Assembly (NCBI GenBank): GCA_963676515.1
Contig: OY781061.1
Coordinates: 434,001 to 498,000, forward strand
Source of the DNA: G963667145 sp963676515 [NCBI: Candidatus Cloacimonadota bacterium]
GTDB taxonomy: Bacteria; Cloacimonadota; Cloacimonadia; G963667145
Direction: 5' to 3'
Length of the DNA stretch: 64,000 nucleotides
Shown: positions 19,645 through 60,887 of the stretch, piece after piece
How the letters are laid out: each line of letters starts with the position of its first letter
How positions within the stretch are numbered: position 1 is the first letter of the stretch
Translations under genes and position numbers: made by a program
The notes under the pieces: generated by a model
Seen by the model: only the letters and a program-made list of their open reading frames with translations
Told to the model about the DNA's origin: nothing
Databases searched by the model: none

Positions 19645-19975
19645 AACAATCTCCTTTATTTCGCTATTTCGCTAAATGACTAAATACTGTCAAGAGAAAT
19701 TCTTTTTCCCCAGTCAACACAAAAAAACAAAAGCCAGCGAACATCTACGACAAGGGGCTTCCAGAGTAGACATCCACCGACTTTTTTTAAAAAATCTTCA
19801 CTATTACACAAAAAAAACTCTCAACTTTTTTCCATAATCTTAATTACGCGGAAAAAGCTAAGAGCTTTAATATTCAAGCATCCCTACGACAGCATTATCT
19901 GTATCAGGTACAATGAGTATAATCTCAGCCTTCCCCCTATTTTCTAGGAAAAAGCACCTCAAAATATTTTTTAAA
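19645..19975. other. 331-base intergenic region upstream of the NADH-oxidase-like gene
   Basis: It contains the promoter/operator at 19664-19693 and a short AAAGCT/AGCTTT hairpin at 19854-19868. On the minus strand that hairpin is followed by TTTCC and could be a weak terminator of the WG-repeat gene. The remainder is AT-rich with no recognisable gene, RNA or repeat. Confidence 0.5.
19664..19693 (-). promoter_or_regulatory. NADH-oxidase-like gene promoter with shared dyad
   Basis: On the plus strand TATTTCGCTAAA (19665-19676), then AAATAC (19682-19687) and TGTCAA (19688-19693) repeat the trxA arrangement base for base in spacing. TTGACA on the transcribed strand is a consensus -35 box. The inverted repeat TATTT-N12-AAATA overlaps the spacer and -10. 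AGGAG lies just before the gene start. Shared control of two redox genes is inferred. Confidence 0.55.
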
Positions 19976-53926: not shown

Positions 53927-55171
53927 TTACTCTCGATCCCTTCTTTGTAACTCACCGAAAACCTCAGCGAACGAGATGTTTTCTTTGGCGAGGTAACAAG
54001 TGAGGAAATAGAGCAAATCGCCCACTTCCCAGATTTTGTTTTCCCGCGAGCGGGCATCACAAACCTCTTCCGCCTCTTCCATTATTTTCTCTTTGAGCAA
54101 GTCGCCTTGAGCTAGTTTTGCGGTGTAAGACTCTGGACTAGGGTTGGCAAATCTGTCTTGGACGATACTGTAAAGAGCGTTGAGGTCGAAAGGTTTATCG
54201 CCAAAGCAAGAATAATTACCCAGATGGCACGCTACGCCTTGTTGCTCGGCTCTCACCAGCAAAGTGTCTCTATCACAATCGGTGCGGATGGATAGAAAAT
54301 TTTGCCAATTGCCGCTGGTTTCGCCTTTCGTCCAGAGAGCCTTACGACTGCGAGAGTAATAGGTAACTTTCTTTTCGGATAAGGTTGTATACAAAGATTC
54401 TTTATTGGAATACGCCAGCATCAACACATTTCCGCTAGCGTCCTGAGTGATAGTCGGGAGCAAATCGGCTTTGTCCCAAGCCAGCGACTCGACGAAGCAC
54501 CTGTGCAGGTCGATAGCCCCTGTGTAGAGTGCCATGCCCACTTGCACATCGTAACCTCGCTTACTCAGGGCGATGACCTGCTCGTCGTCCTTGATGCCGC
54601 CTGCTACAGTGAGTTGGTTGGTGGTCTGCAGCTTTTCGATGGCGTCCATGTCCATGCCGGTCATACAGCCTTCTGTCTCCACCATCGTGTATAAAAACCC
54701 GCCACAATAGCGTTCCAGCTCGTGTACTGTAGCAAAAACATCCAGCCCAGTGTCGTGCTTCCAGCCTTGCGTGGTAATCTTGCCTTTGTAAGCGTCGATA
54801 GCGATTATGATCCGTTGCTTGCCAAAATTATCCACCAGCTCTTGCAAAAAGGCGTGGTTTATCTCGTCCCCAGCAAAAGCAGTTGTGCCGATGATCAGCT
54901 TTTGTGCTCCATAAGAGAAAATCTTCTTCGCTTTTGCCAAAGACCGAATTCCACCACCCACTCGGCAGTCGGCTACGGTGCAAATCTGCCTGATGAGCTC
55001 CTCGTTATCGCCTGTGCCCATGGCAGAATCCAGATCTATCACCGCCACTTGCGAAATCTTGGCAAACTCCCGTGCAAGAGCGACAGGGTCGGATTTTTCC
55101 AACACCTTGTCTTTGCCGTTGCGGAGTTGGACAGCTTTGCCGTTCATCAAATCGATAGAAGATACTAACAT
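53927..55171 (-). CDS. HisA-HisI-HisE trifunctional fusion (histidine biosynthesis)
   Basis: This is a 414-residue protein with three enzyme domains in one chain. Residues 1-230 are a HisA-like TIM barrel: SSIDLMNGKAVQLRNGK with catalytic Asp7, DCRVGGGIRSL, and the second Asp in IIIAIDAYKGK. Residues about 232-320 are HisI (phosphoribosyl-AMP cyclohydrolase), with VLMLAYSNKESL, the metal motif DCDRDTLLV and zinc cysteines in GVACHLGNYSCF. Residues about 325-414 are HisE (pyrophosphohydrolase), with IMEEAEEVCDA and EVGDLLYFL. HisIE fusions are common, but fusion to HisA on the N-terminus is not usual. It would carry out pathway steps 2, 3 and 4. GAGG precedes the ATG. No other his genes are adjacent. 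Confidence 0.9.
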   Translation of the reverse strand: MLVSSIDLMNGKAVQLRNGKDKVLEKSDPVALAREFAKISQVAVIDLDSAMGTGDNEELIRQICTVADCRVGGGIRSLAKAKKIFSYGAQKLIIGTTAFAGDEINHAFLQELVDNFGKQRIIIAIDAYKGKITTQGWKHDTGLDVFATVHELERYCGGFLYTMVETEGCMTGMDMDAIEKLQTTNQLTVAGGIKDDEQVIALSKRGYDVQVGMALYTGAIDLHRCFVESLAWDKADLLPTITQDASGNVLMLAYSNKESLYTTLSEKKVTYYSRSRKALWTKGETSGNWQNFLSIRTDCDRDTLLVRAEQQGVACHLGNYSCFGDKPFDLNALYSIVQDRFANPSPESYTAKLAQGDLLKEKIMEEAEEVCDARSRENKIWEVGDLLYFLTCYLAKENISFAEVFGELQRRDRE

Positions 55172-55196: not shown

Positions 55197-55271
55197 TGGA
55201 GCGGGCAACGAGAGTCGAACTCGCGACCCTCAGCTTGGGAAGCTGATGCTCTACCACTGAGCTATGCCCGC
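55197..55271 (-). tRNA. tRNA-Gly (CCC)
   Basis: A 75-base gene including an encoded CCA end. It folds as a cloverleaf: acceptor GCGGGCA/TGCCCGC, D-arm GCTC...GAGC, anticodon stem TCAGC/GCTGA with loop TTCCCAA giving anticodon CCC, T-arm GCGAG-TTCGACT-CTCGT and discriminator U. It lies between atpA and hisA-IE on the same strand, and is followed by TTTTTT on the transcribed strand. Confidence 0.95.
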
Positions 55272-55304: not shown

Positions 55305-56804
55305 CTAAAACTTAGCCACGACCTCTTTGCACAATTCGTGCATCTTTTCTTTGAGTGCATCACTAAATTTTTCGCTCGCCAAAGAATTTTTCAAGTCGGC
55401 GTATTTGTCTTCCAGAGTCTCGAAAAGTTTTTCCTCGACATCGGCAATCTTGCTCATCTCTATTTTATCCAAGTAGCCATTGTTTGCCATAAAGATAATC
55501 ATAATCTGCTTGGACACCACCAAAGGCTTGTACTGCCCTTGTTTGAGTATCTCGATGAGCCTCTCGCCTCTACACAGCTGAGCTTGAGTTGTCTTGTCCA
55601 AGTCCGAACCGAATTTAGAAAAAGCTTCCAACTCTGCGTATTGTGCCAAATCGAAACGAAGCTGACCGACAACTTTTTTCATACAATTTATCTGAGCACT
55701 ACCGCCCACTCTCGATACAGACAATCCAGCGTTAATGGCAGGACGACGACCAGAGTAAAAAAGTTTGGACGACAGGTAAATCTGTCCATCAGTAATAGAG
55801 ATAACATTAGTCGGGATGTAAGCAGAGATGTCCTCCGCCTGAGTCTCGATAATCGGCAAAGCAGTAAGACTGCCAGCACCCATCTCATCGCTCAGTTTAC
55901 TTGCCCTTTCCAAAAGGCGAGAATGCAAATAGAAAACATCCCCAGGAAAAGCTTCACGACCCGGCGGTCTACGCAAGAGCAAAGACAGCTCGCGATAAGC
56001 CACCGCATGCTTAGACAGGTCATCAAAGATGATCAGAGCGTGCTCACCCTTGTCACGATAGTATTCGGCGATAGACGCCCCCGCAAAAGGAGCGATATAT
56101 TGCAAAGCAGGAGACACAGCAGCTGTAGCACTGACTATCGTCGTGTAAGACATAGCACCGTGCGATTCCAGAGTCTTCACGATACCAGCCACCGTCGAGG
56201 CTTTCTGACCGATAGCCACATAGATGCACTTCACGCCCGTCTCTTTTTGGTTAATAATCGTATCCAAGCATATGGCGGTTTTACCTGTCTGCCTGTCACC
56301 GATGATAAGCTCTCTTTGCCCTCTACCGATAGGTATCATGGAGTCAATAGCTTTGAGACCCGTTTGCAGAGCCTCTTCCACAGGTTGCCTTTGAATTACA
56401 CCCAGAGCTTTCCTTTCTACGGGCAAAAATTTATCAGTCTTAATCTCACCCTTGCCATCCAGAGGACTACCCAGCGGATCTACGACTCTGCCTTGCATAG
56501 CCTCACCCACTGGCACCTGTAGCACCTTACCAGTTCTTTTTACAGTGTCACCCTCTTTTACGCTACTGCCATTACCGAAGAGGATACAACCTACATTGTC
56601 CTCCTCAAGGTTCAAAGCCATCCCGTAAACATCGTTCTCGAAGACAACCATCTCCGAGGCTAGCACACTGTGCAATCCGTACACACGAGCGATACCATCT
56701 CCCACCTCTACCACTTTCCCGGTCTCGGCGATATCCACATCAAAAGTAAAATCGTCTATCCTACTTTTTAAAATATTACTTACTTCATCAGGTTGTATTT
56801 TCAT
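55305..56804 (-). CDS. atpA: F1 ATP synthase subunit alpha
   Basis: AtpA is the regulatory nucleotide-binding subunit of the F1 head, alternating with beta. It has 499 residues. [18 protein letters not shown] (about 165-182) is the Walker A loop with the alpha-type [42 protein letters not shown] (about 261-294) covers Walker B and the DELSEED-facing region. SRVGGSAQ (about 365-372) is the alpha signature. It is the last atp gene visible: the usual following genes for gamma, beta and epsilon are absent, and tRNA-Gly comes next. AGGAG lies 7 bases before the ATG. Confidence 0.97.
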
Positions 56805-56814
56805 TCATTAACTC

Positions 56815-57342
56815 CTATTGAGCAGCTAGTCTGTCCAAACTGCTTTTCACCGAACAATCTATAGTAAACTTCTGCGTGTGAGCTACAAAGCCACCTACGA
56901 TACTCTCGTCCACCACCAAAGAAATCTTCGGCTTTTTCCCAATTTTCTTTGCAATCGCCTCTTCTATCTCTAGGAGCAAACTATCCGAATGCTCTCGAGA
57001 CAAAATCAGCTCAACATTTTCACAGTCTTGATAATCTAACACAGTCCTTTTCAGCTCTTGCAAAATATCTACCACAAGACCAAAACGGTGCTTCTTGACT
57101 AATAGCCACAAAAAATTATGCCAAACTTTTGCATCCGACATCTGTTCTGCTAACTCTTTAATAAACTTCTCTTTCTTGGAAAGTGCAAAAACAGAACTGT
57201 TCAAACTTTTGATAAGTTGCAAACGATTCTGAAAAAAAACAAGCAAACTTTCAATATCTTGCGAAAAATCAGCCAGTTTTTCTTTTGCAACCAAAGAAAA
57301 TAGAGCTTTGGAATATCGAGAAGCTATTATCTTGCTTTTCAC
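56815..57342 (-). CDS. atpH: F1 ATP synthase subunit delta
   Basis: AtpH connects the F1 alpha subunits to the peripheral stalk. It has 175 residues, helical in the N-terminal two-thirds (IIASRYSKALFSLVAKEKL at 4-22). The C-terminal delta/OSCP segment includes DESIVGGFVAHTQKFTIDCSVKSSLDRL (about 144-171). The start is GTG one base after the atpF stop. It ends 10 bases before atpA, in the usual F, H, A order. Confidence 0.92.
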   Translation of the reverse strand: MKSKIIASRYSKALFSLVAKEKLADFSQDIESLLVFFQNRLQLIKSLNSSVFALSKKEKFIKELAEQMSDAKVWHNFLWLLVKKHRFGLVVDILQELKRTVLDYQDCENVELILSREHSDSLLLEIEEAIAKKIGKKPKISLVVDESIVGGFVAHTQKFTIDCSVKSSLDRLAAQ

Positions 57343-57343
57343 C

Positions 57344-57820
57344 CTAGATTCCCTGCGAGATAATTTTTTTGATCAACTTGGTATCAGCATCTTTGTCCAA
57401 TCTCTGAGCGATAATTTTCTCTGAAACCTTGGCAACCAAAGCCACAACCTCATCACTAATGCCAGAAATTACACCATCTTTTTGCGAAAGAAGCTCTTTC
57501 TTGGTTTCTTGTAATATCTCTTTTTCTCGGGACTTAGCTTCATCCAATATCTGATTCGCTTGTCCTTCCGCCTTGTCGATAACCCTTTTCTTCTCTTCCC
57601 TAATCTCAAAATCAGCTTTTTTTAGCTCTTCTTTTTTTTGGGACACCAGATCTTGAGCCTCAACTCTTGCCACTTCGGTCTCTTTTAGTTCGCTGGCTAT
57701 TTTTTCCTGTCTCTTTTCCAAAAATTTTCTTACATTTTGAAAAATAAACTTATTCAAAAGCCACATCAAAACTATAAAGTTCAAGATAACCAAAATCAGC
57801 GAATAATCTATGCTTACCAT
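57344..57820 (-). CDS. atpF: F0 ATP synthase subunit b
   Basis: AtpF forms the peripheral stalk. It has 158 residues. One N-terminal membrane helix (about 7-24, LILVILNFIVLMWLLNKF) leads into FIFQNVRKFLEKRQEKIASEL, and a long charged coiled coil (about 30-140) follows, ending in an amphipathic helix. Only one b-type gene is seen, so the stalk is probably a b homodimer. GGAG precedes the ATG. Confidence 0.94.
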   Translation of the reverse strand: MVSIDYSLILVILNFIVLMWLLNKFIFQNVRKFLEKRQEKIASELKETEVARVEAQDLVSQKKEELKKADFEIREEKKRVIDKAEGQANQILDEAKSREKEILQETKKELLSQKDGVISGISDEVVALVAKVSEKIIAQRLDKDADTKLIKKIISQGI

Positions 57821-57863: not shown

Positions 57864-58106
57864 CTATACTGAAAACATCAAAAGAAGTGCGATAACCAAC
57901 GAATAAATACCCGTAGACTCCGATACAGCCTGACCTACAAGCATCGTCCTAGTAATAAGTCCAGCGTGCTCAGGGCTTCTGGCGATACCCTCACAAGCTT
58001 TACCACCTACAAATCCCTCTCCGACACCCGGTCCTATAGCACCAAGTCCCATACAAATACCAGCTCCTAACAATGAAGCAGCTTTTACGATCAATGTCAT
58101 ATCCAT
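57864..58106 (-). CDS. atpE: F0 ATP synthase subunit c with two-carboxylate ion site
   Basis: AtpE is the ion-binding ring subunit, an 80-residue two-helix hairpin (helix 1 about 6-41, helix 2 about 50-79). The loop IARSPE faces F1. Helix 2 has [20 protein letters not shown] with carboxylate E63 followed by S64 and Y68, the sodium-site pattern of Ilyobacter-type c subunits. Helix 1 has [13 protein letters not shown], with E30 where Ilyobacter has Gln. This pair of carboxylates is the arrangement described for Fusobacterium nucleatum. The ATG at 58106 has AGGAGG 7 bases upstream; a TTG at 58112 would be too close. A c-like triple fusion is encoded just upstream. Confidence 0.92.
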
Positions 58107-58173
58107 AATCAATCCTCCTAATTCTTAAAATTAAGAATTTTTATCTTTTTTATTACTTTTTACTTTTTTACAA

Positions 58174-58923
58174 CTACAACACAAACATCAGCAAGAAAGA
58201 GACTATCAAGGCGTAGATAGCCGTGGACTGAGTCACAGCTGAGCCGATAAACATCACCCGCATCACACCCATCTCTCCTTTGCTAACTTTGGCAATGCTC
58301 AGGTTGGACTTGCCAGCCAACTCACCGATACCGATACCCGAGCCGATACTACCTAAGCCGATACAGATTCCCGAAGCAACCAAAGCCACCGACTTCATTA
58401 CCACGACACCTATCGCCAGACCTTCTGGCTGCAAAGGTGTAGAGTAGAGGAGCATCAAGGAGATGAGCAAAGCGTAGATAGTCACCGACTGGCTCAGTGC
58501 CTGACCGATGAGCATGTTACCCAGAAGAGTCGCGTTTTTGTCTGGGACTCGCCCCATTGCGATGCAAGCCTGCCCTCCAGCGACACCTGCCCCATATCCC
58601 GAGCCTATCGCCCCTAGTCCGATAGCAAGACCAGCTCCCATAAGCGAAGCCACTCTGTACCATCCTCCAGCAGGGTTATCAAACCCACCGAAAAGAAGCA
58701 AAAGCCCTATCACCAGCGAGAGAATAGCTCCTGTGCCTGTAGCAGCTTGCCCAATGAGCATACTGCGAAATAGTTTATCGTTGATTCCGGGCTGCCTCTC
58801 CATAGATTCCACAGCACCACCAGCGATGTAACCAGAACCGATGCCTGTCGCCAAAGAGGCTGTACCTACAGCTATACCAGCTGAGATGTATGCCGAAACT
58901 TTAATTATACCTGGATCTATCAT
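58174..58923 (-). CDS. Fused triple-hairpin c-like subunit without ion-binding carboxylates
   Basis: This is a 249-residue membrane protein made of three c-type hairpins (about residues 7-82, 88-161 and 174-249), each aligning with AtpE without gaps. At the two carboxylate positions (AtpE E30 and E63) the repeats have Ser/Gly (GIGSGYIAGG and GQAATGTGAIL), Ala/Gln (GYGAGVAGG and GQALSQSVTIY) and Ile/Gln (GIGIGELAGK and GSAVTQSTAIY). The third has a Glu two residues from the helix-1 position. Loop charges (QP, GRVPD, AKVSK) are kept, so it may still contact the gamma/epsilon foot. It sits between atpB and atpE in the operon. It could be a non-binding ring member or an assembly factor. It is not V-type K, whose carboxylate is kept. 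Confidence 0.88.
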   Translation of the reverse strand: MIDPGIIKVSAYISAGIAVGTASLATGIGSGYIAGGAVESMERQPGINDKLFRSMLIGQAATGTGAILSLVIGLLLLFGGFDNPAGGWYRVASLMGAGLAIGLGAIGSGYGAGVAGGQACIAMGRVPDKNATLLGNMLIGQALSQSVTIYALLISLMLLYSTPLQPEGLAIGVVVMKSVALVASGICIGLGSIGSGIGIGELAGKSNLSIAKVSKGEMGVMRVMFIGSAVTQSTAIYALIVSFLLMFVL

Positions 58924-60128: not shown

Positions 60129-60887
60129 TTACAGATTCAGATAAAATCTGTAAATTATCTCTCGCTCGTCCAACTCATCAAGAGGCACGGCATATTTTTC
60201 GCTCTTCTGGTATTCCATCGGGGTATAATTACGCCGAAACTGCAAATCGCCAAACGAAAGTAAAAGACCATCCTCCACCACCAACTCCTGCTCTTGCCAA
60301 GTACAGCGGAAAGAAAGGTTCTTGCTTTCCTTGATAAACTTTAGCCACGCAAAGTATTTTTGTAGCGGATTAAATTTTTCTTTTAGTTTTTCGGCTTCAT
60401 CAAACTGCAAATCATCTTCCAACTTTTCGATTTCTGCTTGGCAATCACTCCAAATCTGCTCATTGAGATAGTATTCCAAAATCTGCGGACATGCTCGCTC
60501 TTCCCCTAAAGTGGGCAAAGCGAAATTTTCGGAAAATCTGTCGGCGAAATCGGAGATAAAGAAAAGATTGCGAAAAGGACCCACGAACTGTTTGCCGCTG
60601 GCGAGTGTGTGACTTTCCGAAGCTAAGCAAGGCGAACTGGCAGGATCTAGCGACAGATAGCGATAATGCTCATACTGCTTGCTTTCTGATATTGGCAAAC
60701 TTTTGAAATAGATTAGAGATTCCAAAAGGGTCTCAAAACGCTTTTCCTCCACCTCTGTCAGCTTCTTTTGCAGTTCCTGATAAGTCGAAGAGGTTAAATA
60801 TTTTTCTTTGCTTTTAGACAAATTTTGGCAAATCGCTTTTAGAACTAACTTGCGTTGCTCTCCGTAAATCATCAATATTCCCGGCAT
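60129..60887 (-). CDS. Uncharacterised protein with UvrC-like middle segment
   Basis: This is a 252-residue protein that I do not recognise as a whole. Residues about 95-195 resemble the middle of UvrC/Cho: GKQFVGPFRNLFFISDFADRF (the GPF following a nuclease domain), CPQILEYYLNEQIW and a UVR-like helix pair LEDDLQFDEAEKLKEKFNPL. The GIY-YIG and RNase H-like domains of UvrC are absent. Similar fragments occur as accessory domains in DNA-repair exonucleases. Position 3 bases after nth supports a DNA-repair role. GGAG precedes the ATG by 8 bases. The start is reliable; the function is not. Confidence 0.55.
   Translation of the reverse strand: MPGILMIYGEQRKLVLKAICQNLSKSKEKYLTSSTYQELQKKLTEVEEKRFETLLESLIYFKSLPISESKQYEHYRYLSLDPASSPCLASESHTLASGKQFVGPFRNLFFISDFADRFSENFALPTLGEERACPQILEYYLNEQIWSDCQAEIEKLEDDLQFDEAEKLKEKFNPLQKYFAWLKFIKESKNLSFRCTWQEQELVVEDGLLLSFGDLQFRRNYTPMEYQKSEKYAVPLDELDEREIIYRFYLNL

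What the first reader, a model, noticed from the sequence alone, without database searches (positions are those of the whole stretch)
58174..58923. Triple-hairpin c-like ATP synthase protein that has lost both ion-binding carboxylates in every repeat
The protein aligns with the neighbouring AtpE gaplessly three times. The AtpE carboxylates E30 and E63 become Ser/Gly, Ala/Gln and Ile/Gln. Known mixed rings, such as Acetobacterium woodii c1 with c2/3, use fused hairpins that keep at least one carboxylate. Here none remains at the aligned positions, while GxGxG packing motifs and cytoplasmic loops are kept. If it enters the ring it would lower the ion to ATP ratio by a fixed step. If it does not, it may be an assembly or leak-control factor. 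Either way the operon encodes two non-equivalent c-type proteins.
Basis: partly seen in the sequence, partly recalled or inferred. Interest (0 to 1): 0.9.

Follow-up and report, generated by a model that had tools for sequence, protein, structure and literature searches.

The report
Ion-blind triple rotor piece, ATP synthase
In a branch of oxygen-avoiding bacteria the ATP-making motor comes with a second, triple-length rotor piece that has lost its ion-binding sites one by one, and in the genome read here it has none left, which would change how many ions are spent per ATP.

Summary
Window 58174-58923 (-) encodes three fused c-subunit hairpins between atpB and atpE; the AtpE carboxylates E30/E63 are S30/G63, A112/Q145 and I199/Q232. 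It is no freak: 70 of 124 Cloacimonadota genomes carry this gene or part of it, among them 69 of the 70 with a subunit a that is not N-type-like. The zero state is local: of 65 distinct proteins with all helix-2 sites readable, 8 keep three carboxylates, 24 two, 30 one, 3 none (window, L007, L025, apart on the tree). Relatives' genes are under purifying selection. Hairpin 3 keeps the face that completes a neighbour's Na+ site (V63, S66, T67, Y70) at 97% identity to AtpE even where its own Glu became Gln (rest of helix 2: 57%); hairpins 1 and 2 keep 10% and 2%. The best solved match is Acetobacterium woodii c1, a crystallised ring component with the same asymmetry, fused independently. Best reading: a rotor subunit forming an ion-silent sector, lowering ions per ATP. 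Ring membership is inferred, not shown. New variant of a known kind.

The parts
58174..58923 (-). c3: triple-hairpin c-type protein, 249 aa
   Evidence: AlphaFold2 mean pLDDT 93.2, all-helical with long helices paired as hairpins
58684..58923 (-). hairpin r1 (aa 1-80); site positions S30, G63
58438..58677 (-). hairpin r2 (aa 83-162); site positions A112, Q145
58177..58416 (-). hairpin r3 (aa 170-249); site positions I199, Q232; neighbour face V-S-T-Y kept; polar-loop Pro lost; extra E201
58228..58230 (-). codon CAG (Q232), where 56 of 65 readable hairpin-3 sequences (window counted) have Glu
57864..58106 (-). atpE, single-hairpin c with both carboxylates (E30, E63), the two-carboxylate Na+ motif
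   Evidence: motif as in F. nucleatum, passages of PMC3692424
58929..59822 (-). atpB (subunit a), Arg kept in SISFRLFGN
   Evidence: Arg in 55 of 55 rows that cover the column
57344..57820 (-). atpF (subunit b)
56815..57342 (-). atpH (delta)
55305..56804 (-). atpA (alpha)

Best explanation
The protein is an integral, structural part of the rotor ring. It sits among AtpE hairpins as three covalently linked hairpins. Hairpin 1 faces one AtpE, and hairpin 3 supplies the Val63-Ser66-Tyr70 face that completes the ion site of the next AtpE. Its own sites have been neutralised (Glu to Gln in hairpins 2 and 3, to Gly in hairpin 1), so that arc of the ring carries no ion. The ring keeps its size, but fewer ions pass per turn, so ions per ATP fall (three fewer per turn for each c3 here). 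Shown by sequence: fusion, gene order, site losses, selection in relatives, kept neighbour face, match to A. woodii c1. Inferred: presence in the ring, copy number, lower ion/ATP ratio, Na+ specificity.
For: Conserved gene: 70 of 124 Cloacimonadota genomes carry c3, its double-hairpin form or a piece of it, including 69 of the 70 with a subunit a that is not N-type-like. In 92 of 97 loci with a full c3 (many genomes counted twice) atpE follows on the same strand; 3 are cut by the contig end and 2 are exceptions. Purifying selection: dN/dS 0.013-0.083 in the 17 of 23 printed c3 pairs that have a finite estimate. Hairpin 3 keeps V63/S66/T67/Y70 as in AtpE: 222 of 224 letters where it has Glu, 35 of 36 where it has Gln; hairpin 1 has 27 of 264 and hairpin 2 5 of 264, while the rest of helix 2 is 57-67% identical in all. 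That is expected if hairpin n gives the partner face and hairpin n+1 the carboxylate face, as in E. hirae NtpK (Thr64 with Gln110/Glu139; PMC2359735 passages). The best PDB match by sequence and fold is A. woodii c1 in the 4BEM ring, 1 chain beside 9 of c2; its hairpin 1 reads AVAETSGIF and hairpin 2 AVAQTTGIY, the same asymmetry, although the fusions appear independent.
Against: No biochemistry. In Bacillus PS3 a single E56Q in a fused c10 ring abolishes synthesis and pumping (Mitome 2004, as told in PMC8809890 passages), so a three-hairpin gap would need adaptations not identified here; the Arg helix of AtpB shows no obvious change. A. woodii c1 leaves a gap of one hairpin only. Window hairpin 3 is the longest of 20 r3 branches in the hairpin tree and has lost the loop Pro, which could mean relaxed constraint. 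L007, also without carboxylates, evolves faster in c3 than its kin. No close relative of the window was found, so selection on its own copy rests on an intact frame at saturated synonymous distance. In two genomes (G107, G122) c3 stands beside atpB while atpE lies on another contig. The model is of a lone chain and does not show the ring.
Confidence: 0.7

Rival explanations
1. c3 is a ring-assembly or ring-size template that is not in the mature rotor.
For: The gene sits between atpB and atpE; a non-ion-binding protein would suit a scaffold; the ORF next upstream of the window's atpB, 60129-60887, has no Pfam match at E 0.01, so no atpI or atpZ was seen there.
Against: Of the 70 c3-bearing genomes 59 have an AtpI match (PF03899) and 62 an AtpZ match (PF09527); AtpI lies within 3 kb upstream of atpB in 57 genomes, so an assembly factor is not missing there. 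62 of 65 distinct c3 keep at least one site carboxylate, which a scaffold would not need.
Confidence: 0.1
2. c3 is a regulatory rotor part: rings that take it up are locked or slowed, so the level of c3 tunes how much active enzyme exists.
For: A single neutral site kills the PS3 ring (PMC8809890 passages); a three-hairpin gap would be expected to stall a normal stator.
Against: c3 stands next to atpB and atpE in nearly all loci and is constrained, also where it keeps three carboxylates. No sign of separate control: the c3-atpE gap is short (median 30 bases, starts chosen by script) and a stem there is not general (z below -2 in 9 of 58).
Confidence: 0.1
3. In the window's lineage c3 is simply decaying after it became dispensable.
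For: Total site loss, loss of the hairpin-3 loop Pro, long r3 branch. Frame breaks in c3 exist in two relatives' assemblies, L101 and L074, though assembly error is possible. L007, another zero-site form, has c3 dN 0.087-0.096 and dN/dS 0.073-0.083 in its three nearest pairs, against dN 0.013-0.040 and dN/dS 0.028-0.059 in the seven printed pairs among its close kin; its dS is higher too.
Against: Open frame of 249 codons at saturated synonymous distance, and the neighbour face of window hairpin 3 is letter-perfect (V, S, T, Y).
Confidence: 0.08

Closest known systems
Acetobacterium woodii / Clostridium aceticum subunit c1 (hybrid rotor of Na+ F1Fo ATP synthase, PDB 4BEM)
   Same: Fused c hairpins beside a single-hairpin c in an F-type operon; carboxylate lost by Glu to Gln in the last hairpin; in A. 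woodii Phe70 in the first and Tyr70 in the last hairpin; best sequence and fold match
   Different: Two hairpins with one carboxylate against three hairpins with none; independent fusion (A. woodii hairpins group with their own c2, SH-aLRT 99); the A. woodii hairpins lack a residue of helix 1 that the Cloacimonadota profile has (alignments)
V-type K subunit (E. hirae NtpK and Cloacimonadota V-type K)
   Same: Multi-hairpin c with fewer carboxylates than hairpins (PMC2359735 passages; three full Cloacimonadota V-type K and one cut short)
   Different: Belongs to V-type enzymes; keeps one carboxylate per two hairpins
Methanocaldococcus jannaschii triple-hairpin c/K (archaeal)
   Same: Three fused hairpins (PMC2359735 passages)
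   Different: Archaeal A/V-type enzyme; keeps carboxylates (two per protein, recalled)
Fusobacterium nucleatum two-carboxylate c ring
   Same: AtpE of the window and of 60 of 62 sets has the Glu32/Glu65 pair
   Different: Single-hairpin c ring; no fused partner is mentioned in the passages seen

Membership tests
ATP synthase subunit c (Pfam PF00137) | helical hairpin matching the family profile | tested here: met
   three stretches, E 1.6e-36; NCBIfam NF005521 125.4 bits over its cut-off 122
ATP synthase subunit c (Pfam PF00137) | ion-binding carboxylate in helix 2 | tested here: not met
   G63, Q145, Q232 in the window; at least one is kept in 62 of 65 distinct c3 (window counted)
fused c1 of hybrid F-type rotors (A. 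woodii type) | fused hairpins encoded next to a single-hairpin c in an F-type operon | tested here: met
fused c1 of hybrid F-type rotors (A. woodii type) | two hairpins, one carboxylate kept in the first | tested here: not met
   three hairpins, none kept
fused c1 of hybrid F-type rotors (A. woodii type) | common descent of the fusion with A. woodii c1 | tested here: not met
   A. woodii c1 hairpins cluster with A. woodii c2, SH-aLRT 99; only 83 columns and a quick search, most forks weak
fused c1 of hybrid F-type rotors (A. woodii type) | present in the assembled ring | not testable with these tools
   needs purified enzyme; indirect support
V/A-type ATPase K subunit | lies in a V/A-type operon | tested here: not met
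   atpB, atpE, atpF, atpH, atpA neighbours; V-type D found in 50 of 124 genomes and together with c3 in 3
AtpI/AtpZ assembly factors | match to PF03899 or PF09527 | tested here: not met
   only PF00137 matched at E 0.001

The most novel reading that the evidence does not exclude
A working F-type ATP synthase whose rotor has a built-in ion-silent sector of three adjacent hairpins (about 120-130 degrees between carboxylates in a 12- or 11-hairpin ring), so rotation must cross that arc on elastic or thermal energy; the phylum holds a natural series with gaps of 0, 1, 2 and 3 hairpins, i.e. a gearbox evolved by stepwise site changes, mostly Glu to Gln.
Probability: 0.5. Interest if true: 0.9.

Novelty: new variant of a known kind. 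Interest (0 to 1): 0.75.

Why it matters
How many ions a rotary ATPase spends per ATP, and whether every hairpin needs a carboxylate for torque, are old questions; in an engineered ring one neutral site was fatal (PMC8809890 passages). Here is a natural series of rotor subunits with 3, 2, 1 and 0 carboxylates in one fused chain, the zero state found in three separate lineages. It makes gap tolerance and coupling ratio testable by comparing near relatives such as L026 (one carboxylate) and L007 (none). It also suggests a second, independent origin of hybrid rotors in anaerobes.

Tried and rejected
Assembly or sequencing error as the cause of the missing sites: unlikely for the window, since six site positions differ and the frame is intact. 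V-type contamination: rejected by gene context. Rescue by a shifted alignment: the gapless register is clear, next best score 16 against 139-173; the only acid in a predicted membrane helix near a site, E201, is off-site. Control stem between c3 and atpE: not general. Six hairpin-2 sequences with Asp67 are not the six with Ile32/Glu65, as I first thought.

Literature: among the rows listed by seven searches (listings capped, one of them out of 784 papers) I saw no title or abstract start on a triple-hairpin or carboxylate-free c in an F-type enzyme or on the c ring of Cloacimonadota. Only passages were read of PMC3692424, PMC8809890, PMC8542988, PMC2359735, PMC7793690, PMC7911925 and PMC5662883. 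PMC8542988 calls the F-type enzyme of its Cloacimonadota Na+-dependent; the 12 of 19 passages shown do not mention its c composition. The hybrid-rotor survey of Brandt and Mueller 2015 and the 4BEM paper (Matthies 2014) were not read, only seen as references; I recall that the survey found twelve species with one F- and one V-type c gene, so absence from print is not claimed.

Dropped rows: the species tree left out L033, L072, L097 and L100 for too little sequence and ran in quick mode; the window is a long branch there and its place is unsure. Hairpin 3 of L074 could not be read (frame break) and is not in the 65. L032/L088 and L099-L104 gave no full c3. The hairpin tree used 20 of 66 c3. 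The structure job used 32 of the 34 loci plus the window (L032, L033 left out). Counts of changes on the tree cannot by themselves tell gain from loss; loss is inferred because AtpE and most hairpins 1 and 3 have Glu. That Thr67 belongs to the partner face is uncertain (it holds a water); without it the contrast stands.

Full report
WHAT IS THERE. On the minus strand the window holds atpB (59822-58929), c3 (58923-58174), atpE (58106-57864), atpF, atpH and atpA, then a tRNA-Gly and an ORF joining hisA-, hisI- and hisE-type domains. c3 is 249 aa and contains three c-subunit hairpins. AtpE aligns to each without gaps (30, 35 and 31 identities of 80; scores 139-173 against a shuffled maximum of 43). 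AtpE has two site carboxylates, E30 in helix 1 and E63 in helix 2 (32 and 65 in F. nucleatum numbering), the pair described for the Na+ ring of F. nucleatum (passages of PMC3692424). In c3 these positions are S30/G63, A112/Q145, I199/Q232.

HOW WIDESPREAD. A scan of the genome collection (84,980 species) for six exact peptides of c3 gave 34 loci, all with a three-hairpin protein (two cut by a contig end); 33 are titled Cloacimonadota, Cloacimonas or Tenebribacter and one Armatimonadetes (L023), whose genome is in the same phylum set of the genome search. Only close relatives can be found that way, so other phyla are not excluded. Of the 124 held genomes of that phylum 72 matched c3; two of these (G036, G054) proved to have a single-hairpin c in an N-type-like operon, leaving 70 with c3, its double-hairpin form or a piece of it. 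Subunit a (PF00119) was found in 72; without the same two 70, of which 69 have c3, while in the last (G097) the contig ends within atpB. V-type subunit D occurs in 50 of 124 and together with c3 in three (G006, G083, G107): the phylum is largely split into F-type-with-c3 and V-type members. Of 97 loci with a full c3 (many genomes twice) 92 have atpE next on the same strand and 3 end at c3; in two genomes, G107 and G122, c3 still follows atpB but atpE is on another contig.

THE SERIES OF LOSSES. Sixty-six distinct c3 were aligned; 65 have all three helix-2 sites readable: 8 with three Glu, 24 with two, 30 with one, 3 with none. Hairpin 2 is Gln in 58 of 66 and Glu in 8; hairpin 1 Glu 38, Gln 25, Gly 3; hairpin 3 Glu 56, Gln 9, unread 1. 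Hairpin 3 lacks the helix-1 carboxylate in all (Ile 62, Val 4). AtpE has Glu65 in 62 of 62 and Glu32 in 60 of 62. On a quick tree of AtpB, AtpE, AtpF, AtpH and AtpA (64 rows, c3 not used) the hairpin-3 site needs at least six changes, hairpin 1 four, hairpin 2 five and the zero state three (window, L007, L025). L007 and its sister L026 differ at the hairpin-3 site by CAA against GAA. One genome (G124) has a double-hairpin form with two Glu whose halves fall with hairpins 1 and 3: either the older form or a loss of hairpin 2.

SELECTION. Of 23 c3 pairs printed, 17 have a finite estimate, dN/dS 0.013-0.083; in the six others, among them all three window pairs, synonymous sites are saturated. L007, without carboxylates, has 0.073-0.083 and more replacements than its kin (0.028-0.059), so constraint is somewhat looser but strong. 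For the window constraint is inferred from the intact frame and the pattern below.

WHY I THINK IT IS IN THE RING. In c rings each Na+ site is shared: Glu65 and Gln/Glu32 from one hairpin, Ser66 from the neighbour (I. tartaricus); in the fused E. hirae K subunit the neighbour residue (Thr64) is in hairpin 1 and Glu139/Gln110 in hairpin 2 (passages of PMC2359735). Val63 and Tyr70 lie on the neighbour's side too (recalled). In a ring that holds AtpE and c3, hairpin 3 must therefore serve the next AtpE, whatever happened to its own Glu, while hairpins 1 and 2 serve only hairpins 2 and 3. This is what is seen: identity to the AtpE consensus at 63/66/67/70 is 222 of 224 letters for hairpin 3 with Glu, 35 of 36 for hairpin 3 with Gln (window: V, S, T, Y), 27 of 264 for hairpin 1 and 5 of 264 for hairpin 2; over the rest of helix 2 the figures are 819 of 1225, 113 of 198, 955 of 1452 and 856 of 1452. 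I see no other good reason for it than a mixed ring; a recent origin of hairpin 3 from AtpE would not explain why only this face stayed.

CLOSEST KNOWN. The best PDB match of c3 by sequence (E 2.3e-21; profile 9.5e-35) and by fold (Foldseek E 1.4e-7; VIA Z 17.8, 2.6 A over 164 residues) is chain J of 4BEM, A. woodii c1, one chain beside nine of c2. Its hairpin 1 reads AVAETSGIF, hairpin 2 AVAQTTGIY: Glu then Gln, Phe70 then Tyr70, as in c3 hairpins 1 and 3. PMC7911925 (passages) describes c1 of A. woodii and C. aceticum in the same terms and links it to a reduced Na+/ATP ratio; PMC7793690 and PMC5662883 (passages) give 10 Na+ sites and 3.3 Na+/ATP for A. woodii. A hairpin tree (86 rows, 83 columns, mostly weak forks) puts the A. 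woodii hairpins with A. woodii c2 (support 99), so the fusions appear independent. The Cloacimonadota protein differs by a third hairpin and by the range of three carboxylates to none.

MECHANISM AND COST. If one c3 replaces three AtpE in a ring of N hairpins, ions per turn are N-3 here (8 of 11, 2.7 per ATP, if N were 11 as in the other Na+ F-type rings named in PMC3692424, passage). N and the copy number are unknown. A low ratio suits an enzyme that mainly pumps ions at the cost of ATP, or synthesis at a low phosphorylation potential; inference. The hard point is the gap: in Bacillus PS3 one E56Q in c10 is fatal (Mitome 2004 as told in PMC8809890). A. woodii c1 has a gap of one; most Cloacimonadota c3 would have one or two, the window three. 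Nothing seen in AtpB's Arg helix explains tolerance.

RIVALS. Assembly factor: 59 and 62 of the 70 c3-bearing genomes have AtpI and AtpZ matches, some under the families' cut-offs, though none was seen next to the window's atpB. Regulatory brake: not excluded. Decay in the window's lineage: hairpin 3 is its fastest part and has lost the loop Pro, yet its neighbour face is intact.

VERDICT. Observation confirmed; interpretation partly supported and sharpened. A new variant of the hybrid-rotor kind; ring membership inferred at about 0.7.

Noticed in passing
58120-58139: A 20-base A+T-rich palindrome lies between c3 and atpE just before atpE's ribosome-binding site; a stem there is not general in relatives.
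   Followed up: partly
55197-55271: tRNA-Gly (CCC) follows atpA and is followed by the his ORF; tblastn with AtpA found no AtpD-like second match in the window, so the other F1 genes lie elsewhere.
   Followed up: partly
53927-55171: One 414-aa ORF joins hisA-, hisI- and hisE-type domains (Pfam His_biosynth, PRA-CH, PRA-PH).
   Followed up: no
19864-19971: TPP riboswitch on the minus strand, 63.3 bits.
   Followed up: no
L100/L108 (genome G124): A double-hairpin c protein with two helix-2 carboxylates stands in place of c3.
   Followed up: partly
L096/L103 (G107) and L097/L104 (G122): The operon is split: atpB-c3 on one contig, atpE on another; in G107 c3 is followed directly by atpA, in G122 by genes that are not ATP synthase-like.
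   Followed up: partly
L105 and L106 (genomes G036, G054): Two Cloacimonadota with a V-type enzyme carry in addition an F-type-like operon with a single c and no c3; gene layout looks N-type.
   Followed up: partly
L101 (G109) and L074 (G074): The c3 reading frame is broken in these two assemblies.
   Followed up: partly
L075, L081, L084, L089, L090, L094: Hairpin 2 has Ile32 and Glu65 where neighbours on the tree have Asn/Gln; possible regain of a carboxylate. A different six (L004, L062, L063, L066, L072, L087) have Gln65 with Asp67.
   Followed up: partly
58174-58923, residue E201: Acidic residue in helix 1 of hairpin 3, unique to the window among 66.
   Followed up: partly
60129-60887: ORF upstream of atpB with no Pfam match at E 0.01.
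   Followed up: no
L023: MAG titled Armatimonadetes lies in the Cloacimonadota set and tree; probably mislabelled.
   Followed up: partly
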